53,444 nucleotides of DNA from Candidatus Kapaibacterium sp. (GTDB lineage: Bacteria; Bacteroidota; Ignavibacteria; Kapaibacteriales; UBA4661), in assembly GCA_004292595.1 (NCBI GenBank), contig RDXM01000110.1, positions 1 through 53,444 on the forward strand. Direction: 5' to 3'. The translations under genes and the position numbers were made by a program. A model generated the notes under the pieces. The model made no database searches, had not been told where the DNA came from, and saw only the letters and a program-made list of their open reading frames with translations. Shown here piece after piece: positions 8,218-49,373 of this stretch. How positions within the stretch are numbered: the first letter of the stretch is position 1; every line of letters begins with the position of its first letter.

Positions 8218-8320
8218 TACTAAAAGTGGGTAAAAATTGCCTGTCAAAAAGTGAAAAAGCGAGATGTAGTCCACCTCAAAGGTGGACTACATCTGAAGCA
8301 ACAAACCTTTTTTTAGTATA
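8218..8320 (+). repeat. Family C hairpin element, copy 1
   Basis: An element of about 100 bp running from TACTAAAAGTGGG to a T-run and TTTAGTA. Its core is a hairpin with 16-bp arms: AGATGTAGTCCACCTC then its inverse ending GGACTACATCT. It sits immediately upstream of cobS and supplies a false N-terminal extension to that reading frame. The terminal TA-CT/AG-TA arrangement resembles MITEs that duplicate TA. Confidence 0.9.
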
Positions 8321-28039: not shown

Positions 28040-28141
28040 TACTAAAAAAGGTTTGTTGCTTCAGATGTCGTCCACCTCAAAGGTGGACGACATCTCGCTT
28101 CTTCACTTTTTGATATGTAATTTTTACCCACTTTTAGTATA
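28040..28141 (-). repeat. Family C hairpin element, copy 2 (with covarying arms)
   Basis: Same element as at 8218-8320 in the opposite orientation, ending TACTAAAA/TTTTAGTA. In the hairpin the other copies read GTAGTCCACC...GGTGGACTAC, while this one reads GTCGTCCACC...GGTGGACGAC, so one base pair has changed on both sides. It lies between the ABC permease start (27976) and the barrel gene stop (28168). Confidence 0.92.
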
Positions 28142-38396: not shown

Positions 38397-38606
38397 AGCG
38401 GCACGGAAAAAGTGTGAGTTTTGTGAAGGGAAATTTTTACATGATTAGCGTTGATTGAATTGCTCGAAACAAGCATGAAAGCTGTTGTTGTCGAGACCAA
38501 TATCCTCTCGAATAATTTTATGCATTGTCCCTATCGGAAGCGGAGAATTACCATGCACCGCAACTGTTGTTCTGCGACCATCCGCGTGAGCTAAACGATG
38601 ATGTGA

Positions 38607-38743
38607 TAACGTTTTGACTGTATTTTGAATACTTTGATTTGAGCAAGGCAGCATGCTGCCTTGTTTCGGAGAATTGAAACTATTCATTTTACAATCGAAA
38701 CGGTATGAGAATTGAAACTATTCATTTTACAATCGAAACGGTA
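38607..38743 (-). mobile_element. Family D palindromic element inserted in hicA
   Basis: Flanked by TGA on both sides (38604-38606 and 38744-38746), fitting a 3-bp target duplication. The ends are inverted repeats: read on the minus strand, TACCGTTTCGATTGTAAAAT at one end against TAACGTTTTGACTGTATTTT from the other, with about 25 of 34 positions paired. The centre holds a perfect 20-bp palindrome, CAAGGCAGCATGCTGCCTTG (38644-38663). One arm is present twice in tandem. Without that 38-bp duplication the element is 99 bp, which with the 3-bp target copy adds 34 sense codons and no stop. No second copy is in the window. Confidence 0.8.
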
Positions 38744-38744
38744 T
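38669..38744. repeat. 38-bp perfect tandem duplication
   Basis: Two identical 38-bp units, 38669-38706 and 38707-38744, each starting GAGAATTGAAACTATTC and ending AATCGAAACGGTAT. They duplicate one arm of the family D insert. Because 38 is not a multiple of three, this is what shifts hicA out of frame. Only two units and no spacer, so not CRISPR. Confidence 0.95.
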
Positions 38745-38822
38745 GAGCCTTTAATCCGCACAATTTCAAACCCTAAGTATGCGAGAAATACAAGCATTTC
38801 TCGTCCTGACATGGAAGGAAAC

Positions 38823-39044
38823 TTAGGCATATGCAGCAACCTCAATATCACGAATACCAACAAACGTCGTTGGTGCTGGCGAGACTTCTTCTTCAAGACA
38901 CAACTCTATCGCCTCGCGGATATTTGCTAAGGCTTCGTCTATTGTCGCGCCAAACGAGTGGCAGCCACGAAACGACGGACACGATACGATAAAAACACCG
39001 TTTTCGTCAATCTCAATGAGAACTGGAAAGTGCTGAGAGCGCAT
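38823..39044 (-). CDS. hicB: HicB-family antitoxin
   Basis: A 73-aa antitoxin from the ATG at 39044 (open frame to 39077, which would overlap the upstream gene's stop). It has the RNase H-like HicB fold: PVLIEIDENGVFIVSCPSFRGCHSFGATIDEALANIREAIELCLEE, where the PxFRGCHSxGxTxxEAxxNIxEAI pattern is diagnostic. It binds and blocks HicA and usually represses its own operon. There is no C-terminal DNA-binding extension. The order hicB-hicA with an 8-bp overlap is typical. Since hicA is broken, hicB is now without its local toxin. Confidence 0.93.
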   Translation of the reverse strand: MRSQHFPVLIEIDENGVFIVSCPSFRGCHSFGATIDEALANIREAIELCLEEEVSPAPTTFVGIRDIEVAAYA

Positions 39045-39057
39045 AAAATCGTGCAAC

Positions 39058-39681
39058 TTATTGGTAATAAAAATCAATCAAATACTGCAACACGCCCAGT
39101 AATTGTGCGAGGTTGCCTGTTGTATAAACATCGGTGTCAATCGTGAGTAACGCGCCATCTAAACGCAGAAATCGCCACGCATTGCCGTTGGTAACAGCTC
39201 CGTGAATAATGTGAATTGGCTCGTTGCGGTCTTCGTTAAAAATGCGAGCGGCGAACATTTCTGCGCCGCATTGCCCAAACCAGCGTTCACTATCAATGTT
39301 GTCATCTTTTGCCTCGAAAATTGCGATAATCGGGGCGGAGATATTACCAGAGAAATGTTTCGTGAGCAAAAAATCACAACGTCCGCGCAAGGAGCGTTCT
39401 TTATCGACATCCAGCGTATTTCCTGAGAAGCAGCGAAAACGTCCTGCGTTCAATGATGCTAATTCCATAAGCACTGGCGCAATCATAAACTCTGATTTCG
39501 CTTTTTCTGAATTAAATGACATGAGATTACTTTTTTTTAACCCGCTTACGAGCCATGCGCTCGGTTCGAGAGAGCGAACTCCCAAACCGAGTTGTTGGAA
39601 GATATTGGAAATACCGCAAATGTCTTCTAGGTGATCCAGCGTGTAATCGGAGTAACTGCGCGGTTTCTTGAGTATTTTCAT
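39058..39681 (-). CDS. PD-(D/E)XK-like protein of unknown function
   Basis: A 207-aa protein with a pattern suggesting a restriction-endonuclease-like fold: Glu64 in KSEFMIAPVLMEL, Asp103 in LRGRCDFLL, then IIAIFEAKDDN with Glu123 and Lys125, and Gln137 in WFGQCGAEMFAA. This is the E-D-ExK-Q series of PD-(D/E)XK nucleases. The following IIHGAVTNGNAWRFLRLDG resembles the HsdR N-terminal family. It has no helicase or methylase partner. It lies 13 bp upstream of hicB on the same strand, so it is probably the first gene of a three-gene operon with hicBA. Cellular role not known. Confidence 0.7.
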   Translation of the reverse strand: MKILKKPRSYSDYTLDHLEDICGISNIFQQLGLGVRSLEPSAWLVSGLKKSNLMSFNSEKAKSEFMIAPVLMELASLNAGRFRCFSGNTLDVDKERSLRGRCDFLLTKHFSGNISAPIIAIFEAKDDNIDSERWFGQCGAEMFAARIFNEDRNEPIHIIHGAVTNGNAWRFLRLDGALLTIDTDVYTTGNLAQLLGVLQYLIDFYYQ

Positions 39682-48889: not shown

Positions 48890-48996
48890 ATTCTTCTTTT
48901 TCTCATGCTGCCGTTCCCGAATCCCGCCTATACTAAAAATGGGTAAAAATTGCATATCAAAAAGTAGATGAGTTCAGATGTAGTCCACCTCAAAGG

Positions 48997-49299
48997 TCAA
49001 TGGCATTACGTTAAGCGTTTTTCCCCCACCCCAACCCCTCTCCCAACTAATCTATGCACACAAGTCTGAAGGGCGCATCAATACGTGTGTTGTGGCTGCC
49101 GCAAATGTAGTCCACCTTTAAGGTGGACTACATTTCACCCGCACAAAACCTGTGTTTGCAGCAAGTAGGCAAAAGATGTGTGCAAAGACTAGCTCTCCCA
49201 GAGGTAGAAGGGCAAGATGTATAGCCAGTTTCTTCACCCTCGCCCTCTGGGAAAGGGTCGCTCGCAGAGCGGGGTGAGGGCTTAACGTAATGCTATTGA
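48997..49299. mobile_element. 303-bp non-autonomous element with 9-bp target duplication
   Basis: Terminal inverted repeats are TCAATGGCATTACGTTAAGC and its inverse (19 of 20 match). The flanks are a perfect 9-bp direct repeat, CCTCAAAGG, at 48988-48996 and 49300-49308. There is no coding frame. The interior contains a CCCACCCCAACCCCTCTCCC stretch, a complementary-type CCCTCTGGGAAAGGG/GGGGTGAGGG stretch, and a family C-like hairpin (49103-49135). A 9-bp duplication fits several transposase families, so the driver is not identified. Confidence 0.9.
49103..49135. repeat. Family C-like hairpin within the 303-bp element
   Basis: AAATGTAGTCCACCTT and its inverse AAGGTGGACTACATTT around a single odd base. 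The arms equal the core hairpin of family C except for the outer bases, but the surrounding 30 bp on each side do not match family C. Confidence 0.88.
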
Positions 49300-49373
49300 C
49301 CTCAAAGGTGGACTACATCTGAAGAAACAAACCTTTTTTCAGTATAGCTGTTGTACAACGCACCCACAAAGCA

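What the first reader, a model, noticed from the sequence alone, without database searches (positions are those of the whole stretch)
38445..38830. In-frame palindromic element inside a toxin gene, later broken by a tandem duplication
The hicA toxin is interrupted right after its KGS motif, before the HH that should follow. With the 38-bp duplication removed, the insert is exactly 99 bp plus a 3-bp target copy, adding 34 sense codons with no stop. It has inverted-repeat ends and a perfect 20-bp central palindrome. Rickettsia palindromic elements behave in this way: short palindromes that land in genes and are translated. The second step, a 38-bp tandem copy of one arm, shifted the frame. That gives a datable two-step route: tolerated insertion, then toxin loss while the antitoxin is kept.
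Basis: partly seen in the sequence, partly recalled or inferred. Interest (0 to 1): 0.82.

Follow-up and report, generated by a model that had tools for sequence, protein, structure and literature searches.

The report
Tiny hairpin transposon interrupting hicA
A toxin gene in an uncultured bacterium is interrupted by one copy of a 99-base mobile hairpin found dozens of times in that genome, and the same hairpin tip also sits inside at least three other families of tiny mobile elements whose ends look unrelated.

Summary
The insert in hicA is real: a 99-bp MITE ("family A") with a 3-bp TNA target duplication (here TGA), seen at 88 places of this draft Kapabacteria-related genome; hicA homologues in three relatives lack it at that site. 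(1) The 38-bp tandem duplication is probably an assembly artefact: contigs break inside family A at about the same element positions where interior copies look cut or duplicated, and none of 29 interior consensus copies is an exact 99-bp copy with matching target repeats. (2) In-phase insertion is not a family habit: two other genic copies run into stops; one of six consensus frames is open. (3) The second step is therefore not datable. Unexpected: the 20-bp apex palindrome sits at the centre of at least four MITE families (A-D) with dissimilar arms and different target duplications (TNA; mostly AWT; TA; 8 bp), found in 6 of 391 genomes sampled from the class, all one family. Elements with D-type ends but no apex exist, suggesting that the apex is dispensable. 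A second apex palindrome in the window is shared by two further families. These MITEs look modular: transposase-specific arms plus an exchangeable hairpin tip (exchange inferred, not observed).

The parts
38607..38743 (+). Family A MITE copy (99 bp, plus the repeated 38 bp as assembled); ends TAACG...CGGTA
   Evidence: termini and TSD seen in other copies
38604..38606 (.). Target-site duplication, left copy (TGA)
   Evidence: same TNA rule in other A copies
38744..38746 (.). Target-site duplication, right copy (TGA)
38644..38663 (.). Apex palindrome P1 CAAGGCAGCATGCTGCCTTG, shared with MITE families B, C and D
38669..38706 (.). First copy of the 38-bp tandem repeat (right arm plus one flank base)
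38707..38744 (.). Second copy of the 38-bp tandem repeat; probably an assembly artefact
38747..38830 (-). hicA, N-terminal part (MPKFPS...RIKGS; upper end approximate)
   Evidence: likeness to relatives, no Pfam match on its own
38445..38606 (-). hicA, C-terminal part (HHRLAHADGR...; PF07927)
38823..39077 (-). hicB antitoxin, uninterrupted (PF15919)
8218..8318 (.). Family F MITE with a different apex palindrome (P2); one of four complete copies in the window (others near 28044, 31506, 51118) plus one interrupted at 48935-49345
48996..49300 (.). Nested element of about 305 bp inserted in the P2 apex of a family F copy; it contains a family H MITE (49046-49192, read by eye) whose own apex is also P2 (49105-49133)

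Best explanation
The insert is a copy of a recently amplified 99-bp non-autonomous transposon (MITE, family A). It was moved in trans by a transposase that makes 3-bp TNA duplications (inferred; enzyme not found) and landed between the KGS and HH motifs of hicA. Family A is one of at least four MITE families in this lineage built as family-specific arms around one apex hairpin, P1. Shown: element ends, target duplications, copy number, dissimilar arms, the identical apex, its restriction to one family in the genomes sampled, and elements with D-type ends that lack the apex. Inferred: P1 passed between MITEs as a module by recombination or template switching at the palindrome, and is kept near-perfect by palindrome correction and/or selection. 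In hicA the insert separates the conserved Gly-Ser from the His pair and so probably kills the toxin, while hicB stays open. The 38-bp duplication is most likely an assembly error, in which case the gene reads on through the element in the one frame of the consensus that is open.
For:: high copy number with zero reversed controls. TNA target duplications in A; 26 of 28 interior B copies have matching 3-bp repeats, 23 of the 26 being ATT or AAT; 8 of 10 full-length D copies have an exact 8-bp repeat; 20 of 24 C copies are 95 bp bounded by TA; no pair of families has arm similarity beyond shuffles (A-B 19 of 200 shuffles as high; other pairs 23-199 of 200; one example or consensus per family); three G002 elements with D-type ends and no P1; empty site in three relatives; 38 of 88 A places lie at contig edges; contigs start at element bases 2-9 and end at 91-101; in interior copies the match to consensus starts at bases 2-8 (one at 13) or ends at 92-98 (one at 86) when it is not complete; a second apex (P2) in families F and H.
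Against: No autonomous IS with these ends was found. No direct trace of a module transfer (hybrid element or before/after pair) was seen. Copies that differ from consensus assemble more easily, so some interior anomalies could be real, and a few of the end points are single substitutions rather than breaks (the window's own base 3; L121). The consensus/variant contrast is not significant (4 of 29 against 8 of 21 complete, Fisher p 0.09). In the window both junctions and both TGA copies are present, and the repeat joint has a 3-bp GAG overlap that replication slippage could also give. Three of 60 core places listed (L224, L246, L247) fit none of families A-D by eye. P1 decays in some C and D copies, so it is not under absolute constraint.
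Confidence: 0.66

Rival explanations
1. Rickettsia-palindromic-element-like system: the element inserts in phase in genes and is tolerated as translated protein; the hicA copy was later broken by a real 38-bp duplication.
For: 99 + 3 = 102 bp keeps the frame; the A consensus is open in the frame that hicA uses; RPE descriptions in PMC10969869 and PMC2229807 (passages).
Against: Only 1 of 6 frames of the A consensus is open. Of 50 interior A copies, 1 lies in an open frame with at least 40 codons on each side, and that frame has no Pfam match. The two other genic copies that I recognised (Eco57I-type methylase, VWA protein) run into stops inside the element. The anomalies of this assembly limit this test.
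Confidence: 0.07
2. The 38-bp duplication is real (slippage at GAG), so hicA is frame-broken as assembled.
For: Perfect repeat with 3-bp microhomology; both halves of hicA and both TGA copies lie on one contig; two hicA homologues of the genus look damaged in other ways.
Against: At least 9 of 50 interior A copies show arm duplications of varied extent and many more are cut near the positions where contigs end; family B (89 bp) is clean in 26 of 28; of 11 A copies in G005 and G002 read by eye, 10 have matching target triplets and none an arm duplication.
Confidence: 0.25
3. P1 is itself a mobile palindrome (REP-like) that inserted independently at the centre of each MITE family.
For: Same 20 bp at the centre of four families; another short palindrome of these genomes behaves as an insertion (CTTGAATTCAAG with 3-bp flank repeats).
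Against: 57 of 60 core places listed lie in A-D arms (5 of them assigned by eye after the script left 8 unassigned); no A or B copy without a P1-like core was seen among those read (30 of the 59 B places).
Confidence: 0.15
4. P1 is a functional site (transcription terminator, RNA-processing hairpin or protein-binding site) selected independently in each MITE.
For: Stem of 8 perfect pairs with a CATG loop; changes on both sides of a pair in some C and D cores.
Against: No significant excess at convergent genes (12 of 71 flanked copies against 2 of 30 control gaps, p 0.22, ORF-based gene calls); the terminator scan does not call it; it decays in some C and D copies; the half-site is only weakly in excess in the window (11 against 5.55 expected, 2 of 100 shuffles as high, 2 of the 11 being the palindrome itself).
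Confidence: 0.2

Closest known systems
Bacterial MITEs (NEMIS/Correia, RUP, ERIC, Nezha and others)
   Same: About 100 bp, terminal inverted repeats, short target duplications of fixed length, high copy number, hairpin-forming
   Different: Here one 20-bp apex sits inside four families with different ends and target duplications; I saw no such case in the listings and passages that my searches gave
Rickettsia palindromic elements (RPE)
   Same: Size (about 100-150 bp), palindromic hairpin, frame-keeping length in hicA
   Different: Copies recognised in other genes are out of phase; TNA target duplications
REP/REPIN elements with RAYT
   Same: Short conserved palindrome, high copy number
   Different: P1 lies inside transposon arms with target duplications and lacks the GTAG tag that PMC3733652 describes for REPs (passages); RAYT genes were not looked for
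PATEs and SMRs of Haloquadratum walsbyi (PMC3119063, passages)
   Same: Small elements without transposase, nested insertions, minimal forms of fused ends
   Different: PATEs have near-terminal palindromes and no target duplication; here the palindrome is central and shared between families
QMITE2 of Coxiella burnetii, described in PMC10969869 (passages)
   Same: A palindrome inside a MITE that another mobile element inserts into (compare the nested element in the P2 apex here)
   Different: That palindrome is a GTAG REP; sharing between MITE families with different ends is not described in the passages seen

Membership tests
MITE | Terminal inverted repeats | tested here: met
   Arms 74% complementary over 35 nt; same ends in complete copies
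MITE | Target-site duplication of constant length | tested here: met
   TNA in A: 12 of 50 interior copies complete with matching triplets in this assembly, 10 of 11 in G005 and G002 by eye; matching 3-bp repeats in B 26 of 28
MITE | High copy number and no coding capacity | tested here: met
   126 core places; 99 bp with 1 of 6 frames open
MITE | Partner IS with the same ends | tested here: inconclusive
   None beside the PF01609 matches of G000 and G005 or in 1.27 Mb of held loci, overlaps included; IS copies may be lost from drafts, other transposase families were not searched
Rickettsia palindromic element | Frequent in-frame insertion in genes | tested here: not met
   1 of 50 interior A copies lies in an open frame with 40+ codons each side; 2 of 2 other genic copies recognised hit a stop
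Rickettsia palindromic element | Conserved peptide encoded by the element | tested here: inconclusive
   One open frame in the consensus; no test of selection on it
REP/REPIN | GTAG-tagged palindrome with a RAYT transposase | not tested
   No search for RAYT genes; definition from passages of PMC3733652
HicA toxin | HicA family match and conserved Gly-Ser-His motif | tested here: met
   PF07927 on the C-terminal part, 27.9 bits against a cut-off of 27; no NCBIfam match; homologues read GSHH; the insert separates GS from HH

The most novel reading that the evidence does not exclude
These MITEs are true two-part mobile modules: the hairpin apex (P1 or P2) is a unit exchanged between transposon arms that belong to different transposase families, perhaps through cleavage or template switching at the cruciform, so that one apex can travel with several transposases. 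The 12-bp palindrome CTTGAATTCAAG would be the extreme product of the same palindrome-generating process.
Probability: 0.3. Interest if true: 0.8.

Novelty: new variant of a known kind. Interest (0 to 1): 0.58.

Why it matters
Where the internal motifs of bacterial MITEs come from, capture or change in place, is asked as an open question in the Delihas review (PMC2229807, passages). Here one motif can be followed through four dissimilar sets of transposon arms in closely related genomes, with elements of one end type that lack it, which makes capture versus selection testable. It also shows how assembly of a 99-bp repeat can yield duplications and frameshifts that read like evolution.

Tried and rejected
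Uptake-sequence idea: the half-site CAAGGCAGCA (up to 1 mismatch) has 11 matches in the window against 5.55 expected, 2 of 100 shuffles as high, and 2 of the 11 are the palindrome itself; rejected as weak. Terminator idea: no significant orientation bias, not called by the scan. Rfam: only a tRNA in the window at gathering threshold. Viral contigs (exact 21-mer), plasmids and phages (element, distant mode): no match. Autonomous partner: not found. A first test of intact against broken copies used too loose a match and called some broken copies complete, the window's among them (p 0.29 for consensus against variant); it was redone strictly (p 0.09). The arm-duplication rule misses some short ones, so 9 is a lower bound. 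A general palindrome-context clustering was uninformative, because dissimilar arms were linked, and is not used. A first fold of family examples used shifted coordinates and is not used; the window element was folded. NCBIfam gave no match for four proteins of the locus. The script labelled one D copy (L212) as C and left 8 of 60 unassigned, 5 of which I assigned by eye.

Full report
What is there. The window is contig 76 of a 4.61-Mb draft genome of 199 contigs. hicB and hicA lie on the minus strand, hicB first. hicA is split after KGS and before HH by 137 bp plus a 3-bp target copy. As assembled this is a 99-bp element between TGA copies, with a 38-bp stretch of its right arm and first flank base present twice. 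The element folds as one long hairpin with the perfect palindrome CAAGGCAGCATGCTGCCTTG (P1) at its tip.

It is a mobile element. A 28-bp core occurs 126 times in the genome with up to 3 mismatches, and the reversed pattern never. The 20-bp core is found at 128 places with up to 1 mismatch. I fetched and parsed 118 distinct places: 88 of family A, to which the window copy belongs, and 30 of a second family, B. Two contig-edge places can be halves of one copy, so 88 may overstate the copies. Complete A copies begin TACCG and end CGGTA between matching TNA triplets. In G005 and G002 I read 11 A copies by eye and 10 have matching TNA triplets. hicA homologues in G007, G001 and G020 run through the site uninterrupted, as GSHH.

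The 38-bp duplication is probably not biology. Of 88 A places, 38 lie at contig edges; of 30 B places, 2 do. Contigs begin at A bases 2-9 and end at bases 91-101. In the 35 interior copies with consensus arms, the match to consensus is incomplete on the left in 16, starting at bases 2-8 (one at 13), and on the right in 18, ending at bases 92-98 (one at 86); a few of these are single substitutions. Of 29 interior copies whose middle is identical to the consensus, 4 count as complete with matching triplets, but each of these differs from the 99-bp consensus near an end, so none is exact; 5 carry arm duplications, the window copy among them; the rest lack an end or matching triplets. Over all 50 interior A copies, 12 are complete with matching triplets and at least 9 carry arm duplications. 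By contrast 26 of 28 interior B copies, 89 bp long, have matching triplets (A against B, p 2e-9). The natural reading is that a 99-bp exact repeat exceeded what the assembly could span while 89 bp did not, and that joints inside A are unreliable. Against this: exact copies cannot be assembled through, so truly variant copies are over-represented among interior ones, and within A the consensus/variant contrast is not significant (p 0.09). I put the artefact at about 0.75.

In-phase insertion is not a family rule. One of six frames of the A consensus is open, and it is the frame hicA uses. Of 50 interior A copies, one lies in an open frame with 40 or more codons on both sides, without a Pfam match. 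A looser test, long open frames on both sides of one strand, gave 9 cases among the 50; by reading the translations two look like single genes. One is an Eco57I-type methylase: its C-terminal domain profile is matched on both sides, below the curated cut-off upstream and well above it downstream. The other is a VWA-domain protein, with Pfam support downstream only. Both genes run into a stop inside the element. hicA itself is too short for these tests. Family B adds 92 bp with its duplication and cannot keep frame.

The apex is shared. In relatives the same 20 bp lies at the centre of two further families, C and D. The four families differ in arms, with no similarity beyond shuffles when one example or consensus per family is compared, and in targets: TNA for A; ATT or AAT in 23 of 28 interior B copies; TA-bounded 95-bp elements for C (20 of 24); an exact 8-bp repeat in 8 of 10 full-length D copies. 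From memory, not from a call, TNA and ANT targets are those of the IS1031 and ISL2 groups of IS5, and TA and 8-bp targets point to other families. Searching by arms rather than by core: the 30 distinct B copies that I read, of 59 places listed, all keep the core with at most 4 mismatches. Of 26 arm-selected C copies, 24 have a stretch with at least 14 of 20 core bases, 5 of them exact. Of 22 arm-selected D-type copies, 7 have the exact core and several have decayed cores. Three copies in G002 have D-type ends with a different interior and no core, which suggests that the core is dispensable for movement. Some C and D cores carry changes on both sides of a pair, as expected of a maintained hairpin or of palindrome correction. 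P1 with up to one mismatch was found in 6 of 391 genomes sampled from the class, all of one family, and exactly in 2 of 395 genomes of a phylum sample, both of the window's genus; G003, G004 and G007 of the same genus have none. It was absent from viral contigs (exact 21-mer), and the element gave no match in plasmids or phages.

A second case. The window holds four complete copies and one interrupted copy of another MITE family (F, about 101 bp; TA on both sides in 8 of 12 copies listed) whose apex, P2, is ATGTAGTCCACCTTNAAGGTGGACTACAT. The same palindrome, with a few mismatches in one of the two copies, is the apex of a different element (H) found in the window and in L122; the window copy of H has the 8-bp flank repeat CTCTCCCA, read by eye. 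In the window, H lies inside a nested element of about 305 bp that has inserted in the P2 apex of an F copy. Shared apices are therefore not unique to P1, though this second case rests on two H copies.

Interpretation. The best reading is a set of MITEs with interchangeable hairpin tips. That movement depends on the arms is inferred from the constant ends and target duplications; the spread of the tip across arms is inferred, not observed. What the tip does, if anything, is unknown: gene orientation, the terminator scan and the half-site count give little or no support for a regulatory role.

hicA. The insert separates the glycine-serine from the histidine pair of HicA, which from general knowledge is close to its active site, so the toxin is probably inactive whatever the 38-bp repeat is (inference). 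hicB is open. In G007 the hicA homologue has an internal stop, and in G001 its C-terminal part is replaced, with hicB open in both. Toxin decay with the antitoxin kept may thus recur in the genus, with draft-assembly caution.

Literature. My searches listed no paper whose title or shown abstract start describes one apex shared by MITE families with different ends. I read passages of PMC10969869, PMC3733652, PMC3119063 and PMC2229807 only; PMC4133298 (mosaic non-autonomous transposons made by TIMEs) was seen only in a listing and may bear on the question. The library lacks most subscription journals.

Change after checking. Confidence in the best explanation was lowered from 0.68 to 0.66 because the absence of the core in D-type elements rests on three copies and the second apex case on two.

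Noticed in passing
G000, G001 and six other genomes of the family; e.g. L376 1467, L126 1085, L050 1560: A 12-bp perfect palindrome CTTGAATTCAAG occurs 12-89 times in 8 of the 10 family genomes searched (1 and 0 in the other two) and 0-1 times in the 11 other genomes. 8 of 32 readable places have identical 3-bp flanks (p 3e-8; 5 of 29 without the three that prompted the test, p 8e-5). It looks like a minimal fused-end insertion or an excision scar.
   Followed up: partly
window 48935-49345: A family F MITE interrupted in its apex palindrome by a nested element of about 305 bp that carries another MITE (H) with the same apex palindrome.
   Followed up: partly
window near 43, 7295, 10117, 48835, 51263, 52743; 83 places in held loci of several genomes: Another repeated sequence, GTGGCACAGACATTCTTGTCTGTG (with an internal palindrome), in many different contexts.
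   Followed up: no
L365 1500: A 35-bp element consisting only of two fused D-type ends.
   Followed up: no
L265, L268: hicA homologues in G007 and G001 also look damaged (internal stop; replaced C-terminus) while hicB is open.
   Followed up: partly
L224, L246, L247: Three P1 copies in arms that fit none of families A-D by eye; L247 has possible inverted ends and may be a fifth family.
   Followed up: no
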